A stretch of DNA of 64,000 bases, taken from a virus. The stretch is taken from the IMG/VR virus record IMGVR_UViG_3300044716_000732, positions 23,023-87,022 of that record; one strand, 5' to 3'. The position numbers and the translations under genes are program-made. Positions 24,448 to 59,989 of this stretch are shown here, in pieces. The notes under the pieces were generated by a model. It saw only the letters and a list, made by a program, of their open reading frames with translations, was not told the DNA's origin and searched no databases. Within the stretch, counting starts at the first letter, position 1, and each line of letters opens with the position of its first letter.

Positions 24448-25626
24448 TTAACTTACTCTAATCGTCTTGTTCAAAGAACAAACTGTTGCTCTTTTGTTAT
24501 GAACAACAACTGTTTCCACCCCTGTTACATCTTCTGTGTAATTAACAATAGAAAAACCATTTTGCCAATTTGCACCTGATACATAAGTAGGGTTCAATTT
24601 ACAAGCACAACCATTTTCATAGTTCTTAATAATTTGATCTGGACGAGATCCAATACGAGGAATTCTTTGGCAAGTAGAACCAATTCTGTGAGTATGATTT
24701 GTGATAGTTGAAGCATATCGTTTTTCGAATGTTCCTCTCGCAGAAAATCCACCATTTTTTCTCACCACATCTCCATGAAGAACAAACAAATCATCTGGAA
24801 GCTCAACGATGGATTCTTCATCTTCATTAGAGTCAATCAATTTAATTCGTGACCAACTTTCATGTGGATGGAATACTTTCGAATATGAAAGATTGTTCGC
24901 AATAGTAGGAATACACAAGAGTTGTTTAATATCGTCACTAGAAGAGATATAACGCCACCAGCGACCTTCTACGCCATTTCCTGAATGGTTTCCATTAGTT
25001 TCTAAGATCTCTGTTTGATATGGTTCTGTAATATCATGTAAAAGCTTTAGAAATTTATGATATGCCAAAATCTCATCGTTCAAAGTATGCGTGTGACGAG
25101 GATCTTTTGAATAACGACTGATCGATAACATATCAACCGTATCACCATTTAGAATAACCTTCTGCGGTTTAAGCTCATCTACAACTTGTAGGAAAATATC
25201 TAGAGTATTCCAGCACTCTACACCAAAATGAGTGTCGCCAATAACAAGAGCTATTTTATTTGGTTCGTAGTATGTTCTCGGCCTTGGTGGTGCAGGATAT
25301 TGAACAGCTTTGATATTCATCAAAATTTCTTTGATTTTTTGCTCATCATATTTAGAAAAATTAGAAACGAACATAGAAGGATCTAATTGATCAGACTCTT
25401 GTTCGGTGATAATATCTACTCTATTATCATTCTCATCATAAGAAGATTCTTCTTCGATTATAGTAGTTTTTACTTTGGTGGTTCGTTTCCTACCAGTAAT
25501 CCAATCGAAAACGGTTGACCTTGGTACACCTAAAATTTCTGAGATTTCGGTGTTAGATTTTCCCTTTTTGTGTAGGGACAATACTTGTTCTTGTTTTGTT
25601 TGTTTTGAGTTTGTATTAATGCTCAT
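24448..25626 (-). CDS. HTH plus metallophosphoesterase protein
   Basis: 392 residues. N-terminal helix-turn-helix (NTEISEILGVPRSTVFDWIT) is fused to a calcineurin-like phosphoesterase: GDTHFG, LNGDTVDM, ETNGNHSG, LHGDV and NHTHRIG supply the metal ligands. Phages carry such fusions; a DNA-directed nuclease or phosphatase role is possible but not shown. It is one of three intact phosphoesterase genes here. Confidence 0.8.
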   Translation of the reverse strand: MSINTNSKQTKQEQVLSLHKKGKSNTEISEILGVPRSTVFDWITGRKRTTKVKTTIIEEESSYDENDNRVDIITEQESDQLDPSMFVSNFSKYDEQKIKEILMNIKAVQYPAPPRPRTYYEPNKIALVIGDTHFGVECWNTLDIFLQVVDELKPQKVILNGDTVDMLSISRYSKDPRHTHTLNDEILAYHKFLKLLHDITEPYQTEILETNGNHSGNGVEGRWWRYISSSDDIKQLLCIPTIANNLSYSKVFHPHESWSRIKLIDSNEDEESIVELPDDLFVLHGDVVRKNGGFSARGTFEKRYASTITNHTHRIGSTCQRIPRIGSRPDQIIKNYENGCACKLNPTYVSGANWQNGFSIVNYTEDVTGVETVVVHNKRATVCSLNKTIRVS

Positions 25627-27276: not shown

Positions 27277-28287
27277 ATGAAACTCGCATCAATTGAAATC
27301 ATAAAAAATATAAAAATTCACCCTAATGCGGATTCTTTAGAAATCGCAGAAGTTTTGGGCTGGCAGACAGTGGTAAAAAAAGGAATCCACAAAGAGGGAG
27401 ATAAGGTTGTTTTTATTACGATTGATACTATTGTTCCTCGTCGGGAATGGTCTGAATTTTTGGTAGATCAAAAAAATCCAGATAAGCCTATTAGATTAAA
27501 AAACATAAAGCTTCGTGGAGAATATAGTTCTGGTTTGGTTATTCCTTTGATTGAATTTCCTTTACAATTCGAATCTCTAGATGTTGGTGATGATGTAACA
27601 GAAATACTTGGTATTCAAAAGTATGTAAAGGAAATCCCTGCTAATCTTTCTGGTGAAACATTAGGAGATTTTCCCACAAATATCATCTCAAAAACAGATG
27701 AAGACAATGGTTTGAATGATCCCAAGTTGGTTGATGAAGTGTTTAAAGTTGATAAAGAACTTACGATAAGTCTAAAAATAGATGGATCTTCTTGTACTTT
27801 AATAGTAGAAGATGGAAAATTGATACAAGTTTGTAGTAGAAATCTTTCTAAAAAAGAAACTGAAAATTCTACATTTTGGAATGCAGCAAAAAAATTAAAT
27901 ATACCAGAAAATTGGACGGGCGTCATACAATCGGAAATGGCGGGTAATGGAATACAATGTAACAATTTAAAAATCAACGAGATAAAATTATTTGTATTTC
28001 AAATTTATACTGATAATAAATATATGACATATGATGAAATGAAGCAATTTTGTGATAATCATTTAAAATGCGATGTTGTTCCATTGATTTGTAAACTTAA
28101 AATAGAAGATACAATAAATCTTTGGACGGATCCTTTAAAGAAATTACAAGAATTGGCAGATAAACAAAAATATTCAAGCGGACTTGATGCGGAGGGAATT
28201 GTTGTAAGACCCTCTAGTTATATCAAATCTAGAAATTCTAGAAGACCATTAGGATTCAAATTGATAAACAGAAATTATAAAGATTAA
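27277..28287 (+). CDS. RNA ligase, DRB0094-like
   Basis: 336 residues. An N-terminal OB-like domain (VVKKGIHKEGDKVVFI ... RGEYSSGLVIP) is followed by the nucleotidyltransferase core: KIDGSS (Lys167 as adenylate acceptor), EGIVVRP and FKLINRNY. The order matches the Deinococcus DRB0094 type of RNA ligase. It could reseal RNA cut by host anticodon nucleases. Convergent overlap with the HNH gene. Confidence 0.8.
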   Translation: MKLASIEIIKNIKIHPNADSLEIAEVLGWQTVVKKGIHKEGDKVVFITIDTIVPRREWSEFLVDQKNPDKPIRLKNIKLRGEYSSGLVIPLIEFPLQFESLDVGDDVTEILGIQKYVKEIPANLSGETLGDFPTNIISKTDEDNGLNDPKLVDEVFKVDKELTISLKIDGSSCTLIVEDGKLIQVCSRNLSKKETENSTFWNAAKKLNIPENWTGVIQSEMAGNGIQCNNLKINEIKLFVFQIYTDNKYMTYDEMKQFCDNHLKCDVVPLICKLKIEDTINLWTDPLKKLQELADKQKYSSGLDAEGIVVRPSSYIKSRNSRRPLGFKLINRNYKD

Positions 28288-31263: not shown

Positions 31264-31674
31264 GGGGGTGAAAGGATTCGACATTGGATTCTAACTTCTC
31301 AGTGCATGTAGAGGATGATAGTTGGCCTCTTTAATAATCTATCAAAAACTAAATGCAGAAGACAATACTTCTGATCTTTTAGACGAAGCTGAATACATCT
31401 TCAACAATGCTGACGAGTTCCTCGCTGGCGTTGAAGACTACGCACTCGCCGCCTAAGAGCCTAACGGTAATCCTCTAAATCCGTTTTGAATTGCAGAGGT
31501 TTTGACGATCTGTTAGAAATCATGTAAAAAATATTACGGAGTTTGTTGTAACTTTAAAACATCAAGGTTGGTTAATGTGCCAAGATACCTTATAAATCAA
31601 ATACATTAAAGCATGTGTAGATCTGAAAGTAAACGTTTAATGGACACGACTATCGTATGTCGTCACCTCCACCA
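31264..31674 (+). ncRNA. ssrA: tmRNA (ssrA), long tag
   Basis: 411 nt. The 5' end GGGGGTG pairs over 7 bp with CACCTCC before the encoded ACCA, giving the tRNA-like acceptor. AGGATTCGAC and GTTGGCCTCT match conserved tmRNA blocks. The tag frame starts at GCA 31355 and stops at TAA 31454: 33 residues, AEDNTSDLLDEAEYIF... ending EDYALAA. The ALAA end is the normal protease signal. It rescues stalled ribosomes and marks the product for degradation. Most tags are nearer ten residues. Confidence 0.93.
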
Positions 31675-31679
31675 TTTTT

Positions 31680-31767
31680 GGGTAGATAGACTCGTAAGGG
31701 GCGAGAATTGGCTGTAGACCAATTGTTATTTTTAACCCTGTCCGTTCGAATCGGACTCTGCCCACCA
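31680..31767 (+). tRNA. tRNA-Tyr (GUA)
   Basis: Acceptor GGGTAGA/TCTGCCC with encoded ACCA, anticodon stem ATTGG/CCAAT with loop CTGTAGA (anticodon GTA), a class II variable arm GTTA-TTTT-TAAC, and T arm GTCCG-TTCGAAT-CGGAC. A long variable arm is normal for bacterial tRNA-Tyr. Confidence 0.93.
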
Positions 31768-31774
31768 TTTATAA

Positions 31775-31849
31775 GTCTCTATAGTGTAACGGTTAGCACA
31801 GTACCCTTTCACGGTATTAGTATCGGTTCAAATCCGTTTAGAGATGCCA
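31775..31849 (+). tRNA. tRNA-Glu (UUC)
   Basis: Acceptor GTCTCTA/TAGAGAT with G discriminator and encoded CCA; D arm TAGTGTAACGGTTAGCAC typical of Glu/Gln; anticodon stem GTACC/GGTAT with loop CTTTCAC (anticodon TTC). The T stem has one mismatch. Confidence 0.92.
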
Positions 31850-34790: not shown

Positions 34791-35078
34791 ATGGAAAATA
34801 TTATTGAAGAAATTACAAAATTGACTGTTGAGTGGAGGTCTTTGAGTGGGAAAGGTCATTGTAAAGATAAAGATTTTCATTGGTATATAGAAACCAAATG
34901 GAGTTATGGTCAACCTCCAAAATATAGTGTGCAACATCACGGTTACATTTTACACGATTTTGAGGAAATAGAATGTAGTTCTTATGAAGAAGCATTGACT
35001 GTTTTGAGAGATACTTTAAAAGAAAAAATAGAAGAAGAAAAGAAATTACAAAAAGAAAACGAAGAAAATGAATGGTAA
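34791..35078 (+). CDS. Hypothetical protein
   Basis: 95 residues; KDFHWYIETKWSYGQPPKYS then a charged coiled tail. It overlaps the phosphoesterase gene by 11 bp. Confidence 0.6.
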   Translation: MENIIEEITKLTVEWRSLSGKGHCKDKDFHWYIETKWSYGQPPKYSVQHHGYILHDFEEIECSSYEEALTVLRDTLKEKIEEEKKLQKENEENEW

Positions 35079-35784
35079 TATGAAAACATTAAACAAAAAC
35101 AAACCTTTATTATTTTTAGGAGATCATCATGGAGATTGGCGATTTCTTTTTGATATCATCAGAGAAAAGAATATTGAAAATTGCAATATTATTTCTGTTG
35201 GAGATCTTGGTATAGGGTTTAAATATAAAAAAGAATCCGAATATTCTCAATCAGAGAAACTTAGCAACATGTTCAAAGAAAAAAACATCAATTTTTATGG
35301 TATTCCGGGGAATCATGATAATAGATTCTTTTTTGAAGGAAAAAATAGAATTGTCTATGAAAATTTTGAACTAATTGAAGATTATACTGTTGCAGAATAT
35401 GATGGCAAATCTATTCAATTTATTGGCGGTGCTGTTTCTATTGATAGAACTTCTCGTAAAGAAGGTGTTTCATATTGGGAAGACGAAGCTGTTAAATTAG
35501 ATAGAGATAAATGCAAAGAAGTTGATATTCTTGTAACCCATACTGCTCCGTCTTGGTGTTTTCCACAACAGTTTAATGAAATGGTTTATGGTTGGGCATT
35601 AGAGGACGCATATCTTATAGGAGATCTTAGTAATGAAAGAGCAATAATGGATGAGATTTTTAAACTATGTAAACCAAAACTTCATTTATATGGTCATTTC
35701 CATAGTTCTTGGACTGAAGAGATTAATGAATGTAAACACAAACTATTGAATATTAATGAAATTTGGGAGATGCGTAATGATTAG
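35068..35784 (+). CDS. Metallophosphoesterase
   Basis: 238 residues (ATG 35080 also possible). Motifs GDHHGD, ISVGDLGIG, GIPGNHDNR, THTAPSW and LYGHFH give a complete calcineurin-like metal site. Such proteins act on phosphomonoesters, nucleotides or nucleic-acid ends; substrate unknown. Overlaps the next gene. Confidence 0.85.
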   Translation: MNGNMKTLNKNKPLLFLGDHHGDWRFLFDIIREKNIENCNIISVGDLGIGFKYKKESEYSQSEKLSNMFKEKNINFYGIPGNHDNRFFFEGKNRIVYENFELIEDYTVAEYDGKSIQFIGGAVSIDRTSRKEGVSYWEDEAVKLDRDKCKEVDILVTHTAPSWCFPQQFNEMVYGWALEDAYLIGDLSNERAIMDEIFKLCKPKLHLYGHFHSSWTEEINECKHKLLNINEIWEMRND

Positions 35785-36106: not shown

Positions 36107-37192
36107 ATGAAAGTTAATCTTCCTATAGAAGAGGGTTATTTTAATATTACTCCAGATGAATTCTGTGGATTATATTGTTGGTTAATAACTCCGGAGAGAG
36201 ATGCGAAATGGAATAAAAACAACCTTTTTTATAGATCTTTAATTGTTGATAGAGAAGGAAACGTGTTGTCTTCTGGTTGGCCTAAGTTTTTTAATTACGA
36301 AGAGAAACCAGATTGTTATCCGGATCCTAAAAACTTTAATGATTTGAAATATGAGGAAAAAAAGGATGGTTCTCTTTTAATTGCTGATTATGTAAATGGT
36401 CAATTCTCTATGAGAACCAGAGGAACTGTTTCTTATAGAACTCAAGAAAATGCAAAAGATTTTGAATTACTTCCGGAACGATACCCTAAAGTTGTTGAGT
36501 TCTTAAAAGAAAATCAACACCTCACTTTATTGTTTGAAATAGTAACTCCGAGTAATGTTATTGTAATAAGACCACAACAGTTAGAGTTTTATCTTATTGG
36601 AGCAATAAACAAAAATGGAATGGTAGTAGTTTCCTCTGCTGATTTAACCGACATCTGGAGAAAAATCGGGCCGATTCCAATGCCACAGTCTTACAATTTT
36701 CTAGATACTAATGATATTTCTAAAATCGCAGAAACCATTAAACATTGGAAGGGGAAAGAAGGAATTGTTGTTTCTTACAATAATGGACAGAGTAGAATAA
36801 AATTAAAGTCGGATTGGTATCTTTTTATTCATAAAGTTAAATCCAAACTAAATTCTACTAAGAATCTTATTGAATTTTATATAGAAAAAGAAATGCCATC
36901 ATATGAAGATTTTTATAAAATAATTGAAACGGATTTTGATTATGAGATTGCAATTCAATTAAAACGAGAAATAGAAAAAATTTGTGAAGCAGGAGAAAAA
37001 TCAAAAAAATATATTGACTATATCCTAGAAGTGGTGCATGATATAAGAAAGGTAGAAACGAGAAAAGAACAAGCCGAAATGATAAAAAGAAATTTCCAAG
37101 AAAATTCTTCATTCGTATTTTGCGTTTTAGATGGTAGAATAATAACAAAAGAACAATGGACGAAACTTATAAATCAAAATTATGAAAGTTAA
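36107..37192 (+). CDS. RNA ligase, T4 Rnl1-like
   Basis: 361 residues from ATG 36107. KYEEKKDGSLL carries the adenylated lysine (Lys86 in KKDGS). LLFEIV, GKEGIVV and RIKLKSDWYLF match later nucleotidyltransferase motifs in the order of T4 RNA ligase 1, and the C-terminal helical domain is present. It can join RNA 3'-OH and 5'-P ends, repairing cleaved tRNA. A second ligase lies at 27277. Confidence 0.85.
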   Translation: MKVNLPIEEGYFNITPDEFCGLYCWLITPERDAKWNKNNLFYRSLIVDREGNVLSSGWPKFFNYEEKPDCYPDPKNFNDLKYEEKKDGSLLIADYVNGQFSMRTRGTVSYRTQENAKDFELLPERYPKVVEFLKENQHLTLLFEIVTPSNVIVIRPQQLEFYLIGAINKNGMVVVSSADLTDIWRKIGPIPMPQSYNFLDTNDISKIAETIKHWKGKEGIVVSYNNGQSRIKLKSDWYLFIHKVKSKLNSTKNLIEFYIEKEMPSYEDFYKIIETDFDYEIAIQLKREIEKICEAGEKSKKYIDYILEVVHDIRKVETRKEQAEMIKRNFQENSSFVFCVLDGRIITKEQWTKLINQNYES

Positions 37193-38754: not shown

Positions 38755-38905
38755 AATTCTTGAAAAAATTCTATTCTTTTCGGTTATTCTTTTATTGATA
38801 TTATCCGCTTTTGTTTTCAGTTATTATATACAAACACAGAGCAAATTAGACATGCAAGAATTGGAACAGATGGTAGAACAAGAAATTACTGCTGGAAAAC
38901 AATAG
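38738..38905 (+). CDS. Small membrane protein
   Basis: 55 residues with one membrane helix (about 10-32) and an acidic tail. Overlaps the preceding gene and, convergently, the LRR gene end by 20 bp. Confidence 0.55.
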   Translation: MKILNEILEKILFFSVILLLILSAFVFSYYIQTQSKLDMQELEQMVEQEITAGKQ

Positions 38906-41252
38906 TAACTGTCCACCCCAATCCGCCAAGAGTTGTTGGCAACGCTAAACGTTGATAGCTAGATAATGGAGTAGTGCTAGTTAATGTTTTGTAAATTCTT
39001 CCTGTAGTGCTTGCTGTGTTATTCAAAACAGTTGCAGCAGAAGTTGGAGATGTATAAGTGAATGTGTTTATATCTGGTACACTTAGTACTATAGAAGTCG
39101 CATTAAATCCAGTACCGATATTATTAACGGTAATAACATCATTTTGAAAGAGTCCATGACCCGATACCCTTGCAGTAACAGTATAAGAATTTGCAGGACG
39201 AGTAAAAGTAGCGGCTGGCCAATTTGTTATACCTACTCTTGCTGATGTTAATTTTACGCAATTTGTTGTAAAATCAGGAGCAGAATTACCAGTTCCAATG
39301 TTTAATACTCTTGTTCCAGAATTTCTTCCAGCAGCTGCAAAGGAAGATAGAATTCCATTCACGGTTGATTGAGATAAAATATTCGAACTAGCATTAAAAG
39401 TTGCAAAAGAACTTAATACAGGACCAATTGTTCCACCAGATAAACTATTTGTTTGAACTTGAAAGGTTACAAGTGCTGTGTTATTTCCAAGATACGGTAA
39501 GTCTCCTGATAATGCATTTATATGAGCATAAAAAGTTTGAAGATTTGTAGCACCACTTAATGAATTAATTTTGGTTAATCTATTTGAGTGAACCTGAAAA
39601 TTAGTTAAAGATTTGCAATCATCTAATGAAGGAATTTCGCCTGATAGGCTGTTTGAATAAACCTGAAAATCTTTCAAGGCACTTAATCCATTTAAAGAAG
39701 GAATTGTTCCTGATAATGCATTTATAAGAGCATAAAAAGTTTGAAGATTTGTAGCACCACTTAATGAATTAATTTTGGTTAATCTATTTGAGTGAACCTG
39801 AAAATTAGTTAAAGATTTGCAATCATCTAATGAAGGAATTTCACCCGATAAGCTGTTTGTATAAACCTGAAAATCTTTCAAGGCACTTAATCCATTTAAA
39901 GAAGGAATTGTTCCTGATAATGCATTTTTAAGAGCATAAAAAGTTTGAAGATTTGTAGCACCACTTAATGAATTAATTTTGGTTAATTTATTAGAATACG
40001 CCTGAAAAGTAACCAAAGATTTACAATCATCTAATGAAGGAATTTCACCCGATAAACTATTGTCATGTACTTGAAATAAAGATAATGCACTCAATCCATT
40101 TAAAGATGGAATTTCCCCAGATAAACTATTACTAAATGCAGTAAATCTTTGAAGACTTTTAGCTCCGCTTAAAGAATTAATTTTGGTTAAACCACCTTTA
40201 TTGGCAGAGTTTAATCCCTCTACTGCAAACTCTCGTAAGTTTGGATTAAAATCCAATGTCGGAATTTCTCCTGTAAATGCATTTTGTGAACCAACATATT
40301 GAATTAAATTTGGAAAAGCTGATAAACTAGGAATATTTCCAGTAAGTCTTTGTCTACTACCTCCTTGAATATTAATATCGGTTAATGCAGTCGAATATGG
40401 TGGAAGAATTGGATGTGGACCAGTTAATGCGTTTTGTTGTATGAATAATAGTCTTAAATTAGAACATGCGCTTAGGTTTACTGCGTTTGTTCCACTAAGA
40501 CTTGAATTGTTTAAATATAAAACTTCTAGGTTAGTTAAATTAGACAAATCAGGAAATTGTCCTGATAATGAAATGTATTTATTATTTGTACTAGCAGCAA
40601 AGTTTATAACTCTTATATTTGGTTTATTGTTAAGTGTTTCTAAACCAGTTATAAGAGTATCTCTTGCATTAATAACTTCAAGACCTGTTAAAGAACCATA
40701 ATTTGTTAGTCTTATATTGTAATCATATTGCACATCAATATTTTTAATATTGGGAATTAAACTCAAATCACAATCTCCAACAATTGGATTATAATACAAA
40801 TTTAAAGTCTCTATTTTATTTCCTACAGAAAACGTTGGAACTGCTGTTAGCCCATTCCAATATAAATCCAAGCTTGTTAAATTAGGAAATCGTGTCGCAT
40901 CGAAATTATTTTTATATAGAGAATATCTAGCTTTTAAATCAACCAAAGAATTTAGATTTGATGTCGAATCAATAGCCGACAATGAATTATTTGAAATATC
41001 TAAAAATACAATGTTTGGTATATTGTTTGCATCAAAATTACCAGAAAGTTTATTTCCTGACAATGTAAGAACAGCTAGAGATGGGATTGAATTTGAAGCG
41101 GTAAAACTTTCGATATCATTATCTTTACAAACAAAACTTGTTAAATTTGGAAATGATGTAATATTTACAGAACCACTCAATTTAGGAACAGATGTTCCAC
41201 AATTTATTGAGTAAATATTGTTTGGATTTGATGTTTTGATAGATAAACTCAT
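38886..41252 (-). CDS. Leucine-rich-repeat fibre-like protein
   Basis: 788 residues. About 650 residues are LRRs, many with the LSGEIPSL form reminiscent of the LxGxIP of plant receptor repeats. The C-terminal 110 residues form a distinct beta domain (RPANSYTVTARVSGHGLFQ). No signal peptide. Likely a host-recognition fibre or decoration protein. It contains near-identical 180-bp repeats and lies one base after a PKD-like gene. Confidence 0.8.
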   Translation of the reverse strand: MSLSIKTSNPNNIYSINCGTSVPKLSGSVNITSFPNLTSFVCKDNDIESFTASNSIPSLAVLTLSGNKLSGNFDANNIPNIVFLDISNNSLSAIDSTSNLNSLVDLKARYSLYKNNFDATRFPNLTSLDLYWNGLTAVPTFSVGNKIETLNLYYNPIVGDCDLSLIPNIKNIDVQYDYNIRLTNYGSLTGLEVINARDTLITGLETLNNKPNIRVINFAASTNNKYISLSGQFPDLSNLTNLEVLYLNNSSLSGTNAVNLSACSNLRLLFIQQNALTGPHPILPPYSTALTDINIQGGSRQRLTGNIPSLSAFPNLIQYVGSQNAFTGEIPTLDFNPNLREFAVEGLNSANKGGLTKINSLSGAKSLQRFTAFSNSLSGEIPSLNGLSALSLFQVHDNSLSGEIPSLDDCKSLVTFQAYSNKLTKINSLSGATNLQTFYALKNALSGTIPSLNGLSALKDFQVYTNSLSGEIPSLDDCKSLTNFQVHSNRLTKINSLSGATNLQTFYALINALSGTIPSLNGLSALKDFQVYSNSLSGEIPSLDDCKSLTNFQVHSNRLTKINSLSGATNLQTFYAHINALSGDLPYLGNNTALVTFQVQTNSLSGGTIGPVLSSFATFNASSNILSQSTVNGILSSFAAAGRNSGTRVLNIGTGNSAPDFTTNCVKLTSARVGITNWPAATFTRPANSYTVTARVSGHGLFQNDVITVNNIGTGFNATSIVLSVPDINTFTYTSPTSAATVLNNTASTTGRIYKTLTSTTPLSSYQRLALPTTLGGLGWTVTIVFQQ
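39525..39930 (-). repeat. 180-bp tandem repeats in LRR gene
   Basis: Blocks starting near 39525 and 39705 are nearly identical, a third near 39885 diverges. Each codes for 60 residues (two to three LRRs), so gain or loss stays in frame. Confidence 0.85.
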
Positions 41253-50255: not shown

Positions 50256-50337
50256 CGAATATACACCAGATAAATGGCTGGTTGTTAAAATTGAAGGAGA
50301 AGAATTTCCTTTGACCTGTGAACTACCAGTAGGCTAA
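50248..50337 (+). pseudogene. N-terminal fragment of a YTPDKWLV gene
   Basis: Encodes MNNEYTPDKWLVVKIEGEEF then PLTCE before running into the TnpB element end. It matches the first 24 residues of the intact gene at 51671 (YTPDKWLVIKIEGGDFPLT). The rest of this copy is cut off; a matching C-terminal fragment lies at 52859. Confidence 0.85.
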
Positions 50338-51660
50338 AGACCTACTGGCTTCAGGGTATAAATTCTACCCTTCTTTTTAAGAACTTCAACGCCAGTGCCT
50401 CTAGAAACCTTTGAGATCTCCTTTGGTCTTACCTTAGCTCCATTCCTGTTATCGACAGTTCCTGCCGATTGAATTGCTAATGCTCTTCTTAAAATATTCC
50501 TACTTGCATTAACATCTCTGTCATGTATTGTGTTGCATTTAGAACAAGTCCAAGTTCTTTCATCCAATGAAAGAGATTCTTTGGTGTGATCGCAGCAACT
50601 ACATGTTTTGGAAGACGGATAGAAACGATCAATTACAATCACTTCTTTATCATTCCATTCTGCTTTGTACTTTAATTTGGTCACAAAGCTCGACCATGCT
50701 ACGTCTGATATTGCCTTAGAAAGTTTATGATTCTTAACCATCCCTTTCACGTTCAGGTTTTCTATTGCAATCAGATCATAGTCTCTTACTAACTTAGAAG
50801 AAACTTTATGTTGCATATCATTACGAGAATTGGTTATCTTCTCGTGTACCTTTGCAACAGCTATTCTAGCTTTGTCTCTTCCTTTTGATCCTTTTTGTTT
50901 TCTACTTAAAATTCTTTGCTTTTTAGCTAACTTAGCTTCATACTTCTTAGTGAACTTCGGATTACAATATCTCTGTTCTTCAGAAGTAATAATGAAGTCT
51001 TTCAACCCCAAATCAATTCCAATGCTCTTTCCTGTTTTCTTGTGTTTAATTGGCTTTTCCGCAACGCACAGGAAGGAAATGTAGTATTTTCCTGTAGTTA
51101 ATTTGGAAATGGTTGCTGATTTAATTTCTCCTTTTAGTTCTCTATGTTTAACAAATTTTAATCCTTCTTTGAACTTTGGTATTTGAACTACATTTTCTTC
51201 TTTTAAAGAAATATGTTGAGGGATCTGAAACGAATTTTTATTCTTTTTTGATTTAAAACGAGGGAACTTAGATTTCTTTTTAAAAAAATTGCCATAAGCT
51301 GTTTCCAAATTCATTAGAGTGGATATAAGAACTTGCGAATTAACTTCTTTTAACCATTCATATCCTTCTTCTTTTTTCTTAGCTACTAAATTTCCTGCAC
51401 ATTGATTAAAATTCAACGTTGTTTTGTTTTCCAAATAATGTTTTTGCTTTTCAGATAAAAAGTGATTATAGATGAATCTAGAACATCCAAAGTGCTTTGC
51501 TAAAAGAACTTCTTGCTCCTTTGTAGGAAGCAAACGGAACTTAAATGCTTTATGCATTTCGTTCTCTTTTAGTTCTTGACATTTCCCGATCATTTATTAT
51601 ACTTATCTCAGATGAATGTATTTTTAGAGTAAAAATTAAAAATACTTTAAAATATTTTAA
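50325..51660 (-). mobile_element. IS200/IS605-type element with tnpB only
   Basis: Contains a full TnpB gene and no TnpA. The end next to the TnpB stop carries the hairpin CCAGTAGG-CTAAAGA-CCTACTGG (50326-50348), typical of these elements and of the omega-RNA end. The distal end is not precisely visible and is placed within the AT-rich stretch after 51593. Confidence 0.7.
50334..51593 (-). CDS. tnpB: TnpB RNA-guided nuclease of IS605 family
   Basis: Up to 419 residues (start possibly 51557, MHKAFKFRLLPTKEQ). N-terminal HTH_OrfB region, RuvC residues in SIGIDLGLKD, IAIENLN and HDRDVNASRN, and zinc ribbon TCSCCDHTKES ... TCSKCN. All three catalytic acidic residues are present, so it is probably active. 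TnpB proteins are guided by an omega-RNA from the element's 3' end and cut DNA at matching sites next to a short motif. Confidence 0.93.
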   Translation of the reverse strand: MIGKCQELKENEMHKAFKFRLLPTKEQEVLLAKHFGCSRFIYNHFLSEKQKHYLENKTTLNFNQCAGNLVAKKKEEGYEWLKEVNSQVLISTLMNLETAYGNFFKKKSKFPRFKSKKNKNSFQIPQHISLKEENVVQIPKFKEGLKFVKHRELKGEIKSATISKLTTGKYYISFLCVAEKPIKHKKTGKSIGIDLGLKDFIITSEEQRYCNPKFTKKYEAKLAKKQRILSRKQKGSKGRDKARIAVAKVHEKITNSRNDMQHKVSSKLVRDYDLIAIENLNVKGMVKNHKLSKAISDVAWSSFVTKLKYKAEWNDKEVIVIDRFYPSSKTCSCCDHTKESLSLDERTWTCSKCNTIHDRDVNASRNILRRALAIQSAGTVDNRNGAKVRPKEISKVSRGTGVEVLKKKGRIYTLKPVGL

Positions 51661-55336: not shown

Positions 55337-55602
55337 TGAAAATTTCGAAGAATAGTTTAGGTGGACAGAACAACCATGGACGCATGAGTAGCGCACGTTC
55401 GAGTCGTGCTTCTTCGACCATTTTTAAAAAATTACAAAAGTTAGATAGAGAGATTACAAAACTCTATAAAATGATAACTCCTTTTGGAGCTTATAGTTTT
55501 GATTTTGGAAAGCATAGATTCATGAAACTTGAAGAACAAATCAAAAAACTTGACTTGAAGAGAAAAGAAGTTAGACTTGAGAGAAAGAGATATAATTTAT
55601 GA
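55336..55602 (+). CDS. Small basic helical protein
   Basis: 88 residues from ATG 55336. Serine/arginine-rich start (RMSSARSSRASS), then charged helices. Overlaps both neighbours. Confidence 0.55.
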   Translation: MKISKNSLGGQNNHGRMSSARSSRASSTIFKKLQKLDREITKLYKMITPFGAYSFDFGKHRFMKLEEQIKKLDLKRKEVRLERKRYNL

Positions 55603-57064: not shown

Positions 57065-57748
57065 GTGAAGCTATCTAACTATTTTTGGGAACCTATTAAA
57101 ATTGAACATACCAATGTTTATTTTTGGTCTGATATGCATTTAGGTCATAAGTGCGAGCATTGGGAAACTCCTTTGTGGAAAAATAGAGGTTTTGATTGCG
57201 TAGAAGATCATGATGAAACCTTGATCAACAGATGGAACAACAAACTCAATCAAGAGTCTGAAATCTTTCATTTGGGCGATATAATGTTTGGTATCAACGG
57301 AGAAGAAAGACTGACAAATGCTCTTAATAGGTTGACATTCAAGATTCTGTATCTTTTTTCAGGCAACCATTCAGCTGGTTACAAACAATTGTTGAGTAAT
57401 TCATCAGAAGAAAACGGAATTAGGTATCTTGATTTTAATAATAAAAGAGTTTATTTTGTTCCAAATTATTTAGAAATTATGATTTGCGGTCAACCTATCG
57501 TGCTTTCTCATTATGCTTTAGCAGCATGGAACGGGCAGGGCAAGGGGTCATTTATGATTCACGGACACAGCCACTCGAATCTATACAAGAATGAACTTGG
57601 AAAACTTTTATACCAATGCAAAATTGTCGATGTTGGCGTAGAAAATTCACCAACCCCACTATCCTTTACGCAACTCAGAAGCAAATTTAAAGCTTTAGAA
57701 AACATAACATTTGACCATCATACTAAAGACACTTTAAATCCATTTTAA
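57065..57748 (+). CDS. Metallophosphoesterase coupled to kinase
   Basis: 227 residues from GTG. YFWSDMHLGHK, FHLGDIMFG, LFSGNHSAG, LSHYA and IHGHSHSN give the full calcineurin-like metal set, of the phage SD-HxGH type. It overlaps the kinase gene by one base (TAATG). The pairing suggests joint work on phosphorylated ends, as in bacterial Pnkp, where kinase and phosphoesterase are fused. Confidence 0.82.
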   Translation: MKLSNYFWEPIKIEHTNVYFWSDMHLGHKCEHWETPLWKNRGFDCVEDHDETLINRWNNKLNQESEIFHLGDIMFGINGEERLTNALNRLTFKILYLFSGNHSAGYKQLLSNSSEENGIRYLDFNNKRVYFVPNYLEIMICGQPIVLSHYALAAWNGQGKGSFMIHGHSHSNLYKNELGKLLYQCKIVDVGVENSPTPLSFTQLRSKFKALENITFDHHTKDTLNPF

Positions 57749-58158
57749 TGAAAACTCTTTATCTTATCTGTGGTCCGAGTGGCTCAGGAAAAACCACGTT
57801 CGCCAACAAGATTAAAAAAGAAAAAAATATCGCCAATCATTTTGAAGCAGATCAATGGATGGTCGATCAAGATGGCAACTATCTTTTTAATCCTAAAAGA
57901 CTTGGCTATTGTCATGCTGAGTGCCAAAAAAGTACAGAAGAGTCTATGCAAAGAGGAGAAGATGTTATTGTCTCTAATACCACTCTTACCAAAAAAGAAG
58001 CAAAACCTTATATTGACATGGCAAGAAATTATGGTTATACTGTAGCGATATTACATATGACTGGAGAATTTATAAACAAACACGGAGTTCCATATTGGAA
58101 GATTGAAGAAATGAGAAACAAAAGACAATGGTTTTCTTTAGCAGATTTTGAAGCTTGA
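57748..58158 (+). CDS. Polynucleotide-kinase-like P-loop kinase
   Basis: 136 residues. GPSGSGKTTFANKI is the P-loop, NTTLTKKEAKPYIDMARNYG the second conserved block of PNK/AAA_33 kinases. The length fits the 5'-kinase domain of T4 Pnkp without its 3'-phosphatase domain. It may phosphorylate RNA 5' ends for the two ligases. Confidence 0.78.
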   Translation: MKTLYLICGPSGSGKTTFANKIKKEKNIANHFEADQWMVDQDGNYLFNPKRLGYCHAECQKSTEESMQRGEDVIVSNTTLTKKEAKPYIDMARNYGYTVAILHMTGEFINKHGVPYWKIEEMRNKRQWFSLADFEA

Positions 58159-58421: not shown

Positions 58422-58910
58422 ATGAGTAACCTAATAACACACGCAAAAAAAGAGCTTGGTCTTATCTATTCAGAAGAAGATTTAAAAGAAGGATATAATA
58501 AATTAGCATATGATTGTATTCTGGAGCTTATTGAAGTATTTTCAAAACAAGGACATTCTGGTTTCAGTGCTCCTTATGTTGCAAATATGTTTAAAACTTT
58601 AGCAAATTTTGAAACATTAACTCCTCTCACTGGAGAAGATAATGAATGGGGAGATATTTCTAGTTTAGGAGATGATCCAAAATATCAAAACATAAGAAAT
58701 GGTGCAGTATTTAAAAATTCAGATGGGTCATCTTATTACATAGAAGCTGTAGTATGGAGAGATTCAGATGGAGATTGCTACACAAACGGAAAATCCAAAA
58801 TGAATGTCAAATTTCCTCTTATACCTAAAACTTTTTATGTTGACAGTTATGAAGATGGTTCGTATAATGAAAAGCAATATCAAGAAGCTTTAGATTATTA
58901 TGCAAAATAG
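58422..58910 (+). CDS. Hypothetical protein
   Basis: 162 residues. QGHSGFSAPYVANMFKTLA then an extended segment with YIEAVVWRDSDGDCYTNGK. It resembles phage proteins of unknown function. Overlaps the YopX-like gene by 11 bp. Confidence 0.65.
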   Translation: MSNLITHAKKELGLIYSEEDLKEGYNKLAYDCILELIEVFSKQGHSGFSAPYVANMFKTLANFETLTPLTGEDNEWGDISSLGDDPKYQNIRNGAVFKNSDGSSYYIEAVVWRDSDGDCYTNGKSKMNVKFPLIPKTFYVDSYEDGSYNEKQYQEALDYYAK

Positions 58911-59283
58911 AACCCTTAAATTTCGCGCTTGGGATACACTAGCAAAAAAGTTCACCTATCCAGACAAAGGTTATCAAGGACATTATGTTCTTACTTTGAA
59001 TGGAGAATTTTGGAACCTTCAGAATGGTTCTGGGGGAGATGAATATGTTGTTCAGCAATGGACTGGACTAAATGACTATGAAAACAATAATATTTATGAA
59101 GGTGATATAGTAAGATATGAGCTAGATGGTACTGTTTATATTCAAACCGTAGAGTGGGGTAATAATGGTTGGGAGATGATAGATACAAGATTATATAGTA
59201 CACCTCTAATAGTCAATTTGCCAAACTTTGAAGTAGTTGGAAATATTTTTGAATCTAGAGAACTTTTAAAAAATAAAGATTGA
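58900..59283 (+). CDS. YopX-like protein 1
   Basis: 127 residues. LKFRAWDTLAKKF, QQWTGLNDYENNNIYEGDIV and FEVVGNIFES are the YopX family hallmarks. Common in phages, function unknown. A second member lies at 59531. Confidence 0.85.
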   Translation: MQNRTLKFRAWDTLAKKFTYPDKGYQGHYVLTLNGEFWNLQNGSGGDEYVVQQWTGLNDYENNNIYEGDIVRYELDGTVYIQTVEWGNNGWEMIDTRLYSTPLIVNLPNFEVVGNIFESRELLKNKD

Positions 59284-59530: not shown

Positions 59531-59989
59531 ATGAATAGAATCCCAAATTATAGAGTCTGGCACAAAATTGAAAAACGTTTTGTGGATTTGAGAAACATTG
59601 ATTTTGAGTTTGAGAAAATTGGTTATGATGCTTATAGAGAAGCTCATTATTATGATGTTGCTAAATTTGATGAGATAGTCTTTCAGCAATTTACTGAACT
59701 CTACGACAAGAATAAAAAACCAATCTATGAAGGCGACAGAGTAAGATTTGGATATACTGGAAATGTAGACTTCTTTGGGGAAGTTATATGGCTTGAAGAT
59801 AGAGCATCTTTTGGAGTTAGAACTAAGAATGCTTTTGAAACTTTTGAAGACTTAATGGATTATATGAAATACTTTGAAGTAGTTGGTAATATATTTCAAT
59901 TGCCTTGTAATCCAGATCATAATGGAGAATGTTTGGTTTGTGATTGTTGGTTGAGTGATTGTCCTTTTTTGAATAAAAATGAAAGCTAA
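59531..59989 (+). CDS. YopX-like protein 2 with Cys tail
   Basis: 152 residues; PNYRVWHKIEKRFVDL, QQFTELYDKNKKPIYEGDRV and FEVVGNIFQ show a YopX core. It adds a C-terminal Cys cluster (CLVCDCWLSDCPF) that may bind metal, absent from the first copy. Confidence 0.82.
   Translation: MNRIPNYRVWHKIEKRFVDLRNIDFEFEKIGYDAYREAHYYDVAKFDEIVFQQFTELYDKNKKPIYEGDRVRFGYTGNVDFFGEVIWLEDRASFGVRTKNAFETFEDLMDYMKYFEVVGNIFQLPCNPDHNGECLVCDCWLSDCPFLNKNES

What the first reader, a model, noticed from the sequence alone, without database searches (positions are those of the whole stretch)
57065..58158. Split end-healing pair: phosphoesterase overlapping a kinase
The two genes share one base and encode a metallophosphoesterase and a 5'-kinase-like P-loop protein. 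Bacterial Pnkp fuses a kinase, a metallophosphoesterase and a ligase. With two RNA ligases elsewhere, tRNAs and tmRNA, this phage may carry a dispersed RNA-repair system distinct from T4 Pnkp/Rnl1.
Basis: inference. Interest (0 to 1): 0.63.

Follow-up and report, generated by a model that had tools for sequence, protein, structure and literature searches.

The report
Phage RNA-repair gene pair, split cassette
Two touching phage genes, a metal-dependent phosphatase-like enzyme and a small kinase, very probably prepare broken RNA ends (likely cut tRNAs) for resealing; many phages keep relatives of both beside an RNA ligase, and the phosphatase-like enzyme may be the unidentified 3'-end cleaner of that repair kit.

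Summary
MPE1 (57065-57748) and a P-loop kinase (57748-58158) overlap by one base (TAATG). Both are under purifying selection, and both keep the catalytic residues tested except the kinase's lid arginines. The kinase model is closest to polynucleotide kinases (C. thermocellum Pnkp, T4 PNK, PNKP). MPE1 belongs to phrog_547; its nearest structure, 1xm7, has no known function, so MPE1 is not a Pnkp phosphatase.

The RNA-end-healing reading is supported by genomic context. Among 81 dereplicated relatives of the kinase in viral contigs, 31 have this MPE family and 28 an Rnl1-type ligase within 3 kb, against 0 of 79 control loci. Aeromonas, Vibrio, E. coli and Pseudomonas phages carry MPE, Rnl1 and kinase as neighbouring genes.

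In this phage the set is split. A second, unrelated metallophosphoesterase (MPE2, 35068-35784) lies 5' of the Rnl1-type ligase (36107-37192). In related contigs MPE1, MPE2, kinase and Rnl1 form one array. The record also has a DraRnl/Rnl5-like ligase, eight tRNAs and a tmRNA, and no T4-type HAD phosphatase.

New variant of a known kind. RNA activity of both enzymes is inferred. Published work notes the kinase and ligases and that a 3'-phosphatase domain is lacking; MPE1 is the best candidate.

The parts
57065..57748 (+). MPE1: metallophosphoesterase, phrog_547, 227 aa, GTG start; proposed RNA 3'-end healing enzyme
57748..58158 (+). KIN: short P-loop kinase, phrog_2071 / AAA_33, 136 aa; proposed RNA 5'-OH kinase
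57746..57750 (+). TAATG stop-start overlap joining the two genes; kept in four of five close relatives
35068..35784 (+). MPE2: second metallophosphoesterase, phrog_1649 / PF00149, a different family from MPE1; lies 5' of the Rnl1-type ligase here and joins KIN in relatives L020, L021 and L023
36107..37192 (+). Rnl1-type ATP-dependent RNA ligase (phrog_562, TIGR02308) with KxDG motif; mechanical ORF starts at TTG 36068, but homologues suggest ATG 36107
27277..28287 (+). second RNA ligase, DraRnl/Rnl5-like (TIGR02306, PHA02142 OB-fold + RNA_ligase, phrog_968) with KxDG motif
31264..31674 (+). tmRNA
31680..31767 (+). tRNA-Tyr(GTA)
31775..31849 (+). tRNA-Glu(TTC)

Best explanation
The pair is the end-healing half of a phage RNA-repair set. 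A host nuclease, probably an anticodon nuclease or another tRNA-cutting defence, leaves 2',3'-cyclic-phosphate or 3'-phosphate ends and 5'-OH ends. MPE1 (with or without MPE2) clears the 3' end to 3'-OH. KIN phosphorylates the 5'-OH with ATP. The Rnl1-type ligase, and perhaps the Rnl5-like ligase, then reseals the RNA. In this phage the set is split: MPE2-Rnl1 at 35-37 kb and MPE1-KIN at 57-58 kb, both on the + strand. Shown here: the genes, motifs, folds, purifying selection, and genomic linkage of MPE1, KIN and Rnl1 families across many phages. Inferred: activity on RNA, tRNA as the substrate, the order of steps, and a role against host defence.
For: Kinase fold: AlphaFold2 model, pLDDT 91; the best Foldseek hits are C. 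thermocellum Pnkp kinase, T4 PNK and mammalian PNKP, and a family profile finds T4 PNK at 2e-8 over its first 117 residues. Catalytic K15 and D35, aligned with T4 K15 and D35, are invariant in 61 relatives. Linkage: named phages carry MPE, Rnl1 and kinase as consecutive or near genes, e.g. Aeromonas phiA009, Vibrio F88, E. coli ESCO9, Pseudomonas Ab1 and Pyxpy01, Vibrio pv27. An unbiased neighbour count around kinases ranks MPE1 first (45 loci), Rnl1 second (38), the phrog_968 ligase third (13) and cRec, predicted to process 2',3'-cyclic phosphates, fourth (12). After 80% dereplication (n=81), MPE1 lies within 3 kb in 31 and at 3-9 kb in 4; Rnl1 28 and 3; 14 gene orders with partners occur, and no MPE1 is on the opposite strand. 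ThyX control: 0 of 79 loci with any partner within 3 kb. At record level Rnl1 is found in 25 of 46 kinase records and 0 of 20 controls. No PNK3P or 2H match in this record.
Against: The MPE1 family is broader than RNA repair: only 16 of 64 MPE1 loci have any partner within 3 kb, and 7 of 20 control records carry MPE1 with no Rnl1 match. MPE1's nearest structure has no known function. The kinase family lacks the T4 lid arginines R122 and R126 (in a gap) and R38, and T4 D85 is N77. MPE2 could be the real 3'-healing enzyme. No biochemical data exist for either protein.
Confidence: 0.66

Rival explanations
1. Division of labour, or replacement: MPE2, 5' of Rnl1, is the enzyme that heals 3' ends (or opens the cyclic phosphate), and MPE1 plays a secondary, non-catalytic or different role.
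For: MPE2 lies 5' of Rnl1 in the window and in L019, L022 and L116, and overlaps KIN in L020, L021 and L023. In L020, L022 and L034 MPE1 has lost the conserved first metal ligand D23 (to Cys) and the Gly of GHxH.
Against: In most phages of the cassette (Pakpunavirus, Vibrio, Aeromonas, Justusliebigvirus) MPE1 is the phosphoesterase annotated beside Rnl1 and kinase. MPE2 beside Rnl1 or KIN was seen only in the window's close kin, and in Streptomyces phage Evy it lies beside RIIA/RIIB. The window's MPE1 keeps all metal ligands and is under purifying selection.
Confidence: 0.2
2. MPE1 is a counter-signalling or general nucleotide phosphodiesterase, and the kinase acts on another small substrate; the two are neighbours only because accessory and anti-defence genes cluster. 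Tad3, an anti-Thoeris family, lies 264 bases downstream of the kinase gene.
For: Tad3 at 58422-58910 (PF25185 E 2e-39). In Pakpunavirus the cassette adjoins ribose-phosphate pyrophosphokinase and nicotinamide phosphoribosyltransferase genes. MPE1 often occurs without kinase or ligase nearby. Calcineurin-like phosphodiesterases are predicted to counter nucleotide signals in jumbo phages (PMC7824862).
Against: The repeated, same-strand neighbours of the kinase are RNA ligases and MPE1, in many gene orders, not generic anti-defence genes; Rnl1 is absent from control records.
Confidence: 0.17
3. The pair works on DNA ends (3'-phosphate and 5'-OH DNA nicks), not RNA.
For: PNK-fold kinases and PNKP act on DNA as well as RNA (established knowledge). 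DNA ligase genes lie within about 5 kb of the cassette in phiA009, ESCO9, Ab1 and Pyxpy01.
Against: The adjacent ligase is the Rnl1 RNA ligase; the next most frequent partners are a second RNA ligase family and cRec.
Confidence: 0.08

Closest known systems
T4 PseT (PNK with HAD 3'-phosphatase) plus RnlA (Rnl1) tRNA-repair system
   Same: 5'-kinase plus 3'-end healing plus Rnl1-type ligase; kinase fold and catalytic K15 and D35; pseT and rnlA lie near each other in T4
   Different: 3'-healing is by separate calcineurin-like phosphoesterase(s), not a fused HAD domain; the kinase is a 136-aa stand-alone protein without the T4 lid arginines; a second, Rnl5-like ligase and a second MPE are present
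Bacterial Pnkp (kinase-MPE-ligase fusion, TIGR04075) with Hen1
   Same: kinase + metallophosphoesterase + ligase logic; the kinase is structurally closest to C. thermocellum Pnkp kinase
   Different: separate genes; MPE1 is of another MPE subfamily (1xm7-like); the separate ligases match the Rnl1 and DRB0094 families
Phage RNA-repair repertoire predicted by Iyer et al. 2021 (PMC7824862)
   Same: PNK, phosphoesterase and ATP-grasp ligase sets; [quoted passage not shown] cRec linked to RNA ligases
   Different: the passages read do not name this MPE1-KIN-Rnl1 cassette, its frequency, or the MPE1-MPE2-KIN-Rnl1 array
Pakpunavirus Adele repair proposal (PMC12846349)
   Same: putative 5'-kinase plus two RNA ligases proposed to restore cleaved tRNA; an Rnl1-kinase-phosphoesterase neighbourhood occurs in the related Pakpunavirus Ab1
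   Different: the paper notes that its kinase lacks a 3'-phosphatase domain; the passages read name no replacement. The linked MPE1 is the candidate

Membership tests
T4-type Pnkp (PseT) | kinase fused to a HAD-type 3'-phosphatase (PNK3P) | tested here: not met
   kinase ORF is 136 aa; no PF08645 match in the 87-kb record; the record may be incomplete
Polynucleotide 5'-kinase (T4/Cth Pnkp fold) | fold and Walker A lysine | tested here: met
   Foldseek top hits are PNKs; K15 invariant in 61 of 61
Polynucleotide 5'-kinase (T4/Cth Pnkp fold) | general-base Asp (T4 D35) | tested here: met
   D35 invariant in 61 of 61 and aligned with T4 D35; its role is established knowledge
Polynucleotide 5'-kinase (T4/Cth Pnkp fold) | lid arginines (T4 R122, R126) and 3'-phosphate contact R38 | tested here: not met
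   R122 and R126 fall in a gap, R38 aligns with Met; an invariant His112 lies in the short lid. The family is at best a divergent PNK
Polynucleotide 5'-kinase (T4/Cth Pnkp fold) | phosphorylation of 5'-OH RNA | not testable with these tools
   needs an assay
Bacterial Pnkp (TIGR04075) | single protein with kinase, MPE and ligase domains | tested here: not met
   separate genes; 19 bits against a cut-off of 750
Bacterial Pnkp (TIGR04075) | Pnkp-type phosphatase domain | tested here: not met
   MPE1 matches 1xm7, then LpxH and Mre11; no Pnkp phosphatase among the 50 best, none in the profile search
Calcineurin-like metallophosphoesterase superfamily | DxH, GD, GNH, H and GHxH metal-site motifs | tested here: met
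   D23, H25, D72, N101, H102, H149, H168 and H170 conserved; fold match 1xm7
Rnl1 RNA ligase | nucleotidyltransferase with KxDG, T4 RnlA similarity | tested here: met
   TIGR02308 E 6e-20 though below its cut-off; 27% identity to T4 RnlA over 226 columns, E 3e-13, KKDG motif
DraRnl/Rnl5 RNA ligase | N-terminal OB domain plus ligase domain, DRB0094 similarity | tested here: met
   PF21189 + PF09414; TIGR02306 124.7 bits, below its cut-off of 151

The most novel reading that the evidence does not exclude
A four-component, two-phosphoesterase RNA-end-healing system: MPE2 opens 2',3'-cyclic phosphates, MPE1 removes the remaining monophosphate, a lid-less kinase with an invariant lid histidine in place of the arginines phosphorylates 5' ends, and Rnl1 seals. 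It evolved as a mobile, reshuffling cassette that replaces T4 PseT in a large share of non-T4-like phages, and it is partly degenerate in some (MPE1 having lost a metal ligand).
Probability: 0.22. Interest if true: 0.68.

Novelty: new variant of a known kind. Interest (0 to 1): 0.52.

Why it matters
tRNA-cutting defences (PrrC, RloC, PARIS, retron-Eco7 and others) are a front line against phages, and how non-T4 phages survive them is mostly unknown beyond decoy tRNAs. If right, a phage gene family annotated only as 'phosphoesterase', with matches in 1,098 of 50,697 phage records, would gain a testable function in RNA repair at least where it neighbours the kinase and Rnl1. It would also fill the 3'-phosphatase gap left in the Pakpunavirus repair proposal. 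Several lab-amenable phages of E. coli and Pseudomonas carry the compact version, so the test is practical.

Tried and rejected
Near DNA search for the phage itself: no match in the named phage collection. MPE1 as a Pnkp-type phosphatase: rejected. Kinase-MPE or kinase-ligase fusions among fetched ORFs: none found; phrog_8238 is matched by the kinase at its N-terminus and by Rnl1 at its C-terminus, so a fused form may exist, but no member was read. cRec, PNK3P and 2H in this record: no match (the cRec control rang nowhere, so that negative is weak). MPE2 against PDB sequences: nothing, so its suggested cyclic-phosphodiesterase role is a guess. Single-linkage dereplication at 60% collapsed the data too far (39 loci; MPE1 within 3 kb in 8, Rnl1 in 10) and was replaced by greedy clustering at 80% and 65%, which gave the same direction with larger numbers. 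Record-level MPE1 presence was not clearly different from control (24 of 46 at E<1e-20 against 7 of 20), so only adjacency and the Rnl1 link are used. In one search a T4 kinase row was typed in; it was not relied on and was replaced by the fetched T4 gene.

Full report
OBSERVATION. Both ORFs are at the stated coordinates and share one base (TAATG). The upstream product (MPE1) belongs to phrog_547 and the downstream product (KIN) to phrog_2071/AAA_33. Both evolve under purifying selection and the overlap is kept in four of five close relatives. The window is bases 23023-87022 of an 87,022-base viral record. ARAGORN finds eight clear tRNAs in the record (two in the window, six in the first 23 kb) and Rfam a tmRNA.

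KINASE. A 61-sequence alignment gives a confident model (pLDDT 91) whose best structural matches are C. thermocellum Pnkp kinase, T4 PNK and mammalian PNKP; a profile search finds T4 PNK at 2e-8. K15 and D35 are invariant and align with T4 K15 and D35. The lid is shortened: T4 R122 and R126 fall in a gap, and the family has an invariant His112 and Pro115 in its short lid. It is therefore a divergent, stand-alone PNK-like kinase; its activity is inferred.

PHOSPHOESTERASE. MPE1 has all calcineurin-type metal-site residues and a confident model (pLDDT 92), but only one strong structural match, 1xm7 of unknown function (profile E 3e-22). It is not the phosphatase module of bacterial Pnkp.

LINKAGE. 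Homologues were first read in annotated phages. MPE, Rnl1 and kinase are consecutive in phiA009, F88 and ESCO9 and within about 3 kb in Ab1, Pyxpy01 and pv27. Nitrincola phage 1M3-16 has the MPE and kinase about 1.7 kb apart with an Rnl1-like ORF between them, annotated hypothetical and used here as a seed on the strength of alignment alone. Cellulophaga phi17:2 has the MPE with no kinase or ligase annotated within about 6 kb. Eighty kinase loci were then fetched by kinase sequence alone. Clustering their neighbours without preselection gives MPE1 (45 loci), Rnl1 (38), phrog_968 ligase (13) and cRec (12) as the top families; the next reaches 9. After 80% dereplication, MPE1 lies within 3 kb in 31 of 81 and Rnl1 in 28 of 81, against 4 and 3 at 3-9 kb; at 65% the figures are 19 and 20 of 57 against 4 and 2. 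Gene order varies widely. Loci fetched with an unrelated gene (ThyX) gave 0 of 79 for every partner within 3 kb. At record level Rnl1 was found in 25 of 46 kinase records against 0 of 20 controls. One of only two control records with the kinase has it overlapping an MPE1. The reverse link is weaker: 16 of 64 MPE1 loci have a partner within 3 kb, so the MPE1 family is not limited to this role.

A SPLIT SET. The window holds a second metallophosphoesterase, MPE2 (35068-35784, phrog_1649), 5' of the Rnl1-type ligase. Only the N-terminal part aligns with MPE1 in a profile comparison. In L020, L021 and L023 the order is MPE1-x-x-MPE2-KIN-Rnl1; in L019 MPE2-x-Rnl1-KIN; in L022 MPE1...MPE2-Rnl1...KIN; in L116 MPE2-Rnl1...MPE1. 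Four close relatives of the window also carry Rnl1 upstream of MPE1-KIN. I infer that the window's two pairs are halves of one reshuffled set; which arrangement is ancestral was not tested. In L020, L022 and L034 MPE1 has lost metal ligand D23, which hints that MPE2 can take over.

MECHANISM. Most likely: MPE1 (with or without MPE2) clears 3' ends, KIN phosphorylates 5' ends, Rnl1 and/or the Rnl5-like ligase seals, and cut tRNA is the substrate. No PNK3P or 2H match was found in the record, so these proteins are the best available candidates for end healing, with the caveat that the record may be incomplete. Fold, motifs, selection and linkage are shown; substrate, activity and the anti-defence role are inferred.

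PRIOR WORK. Iyer et al. 2021 (PMC7824862) predicted PNK, phosphoesterase and ligase sets in jumbo phages, with calcineurin-like phosphatases in a small number. The Pakpunavirus Adele paper (PMC12846349) proposed tRNA repair by a 5'-kinase and two ligases and noted that the kinase lacks a 3'-phosphatase domain. What is added here is the linked MPE1 as the candidate, with a count and control, and the four-gene array. The literature search covered open-licence papers only.

Noticed in passing
58422-58910 +: Homologue of Tad3, a Thoeris anti-defence family (PF25185 E 2e-39), 264 bases downstream of the kinase gene.
   Followed up: no
55346-55420 +: tRNA-like element with 7-bp acceptor, 5-bp T stem and encoded CCA but no normal anticodon arm (ARAGORN: 4-base anticodon gacg); ARAGORN also calls it in L002, L003, L004, L007 and L013, and it overlaps an ORF. 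It does not reach Rfam's tRNA threshold. Pseudo-tRNA or tRNA mimic, unexplained.
   Followed up: partly
31264-31674 +: Phage tmRNA; read by eye, the tag is unusually long (about 33 residues, ending ALAA).
   Followed up: no
24448-25626 -: Third metallophosphoesterase-type protein (phrog_221) with an N-terminal transposase-like HTH domain.
   Followed up: no
L020:1503-2216, L022:2101-2763, L034:5667-6356: MPE1 homologues that have lost the first metal ligand (DxH to CxH) and the Gly of GHxH; in L020 and L022 an intact MPE2 motif set is present nearby.
   Followed up: partly
kinase loci, e.g. L076:11426-11908: cRec (PF20274) genes recur near the kinase (12 loci), most often as KIN-Rnl1-cRec; CCA-adding enzyme and macro-domain genes recur more rarely.
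   Followed up: partly
50334-51593 -: Transposase (phrog_506, E 1e-135) inside the phage record.
   Followed up: no
38886-41252 -: 788-aa leucine-rich-repeat protein with a weak endosialidase beta-barrel match near its C-terminus.
   Followed up: no
58900-59283 and 59531-59989 +: Two YopX-family proteins close together.
   Followed up: no
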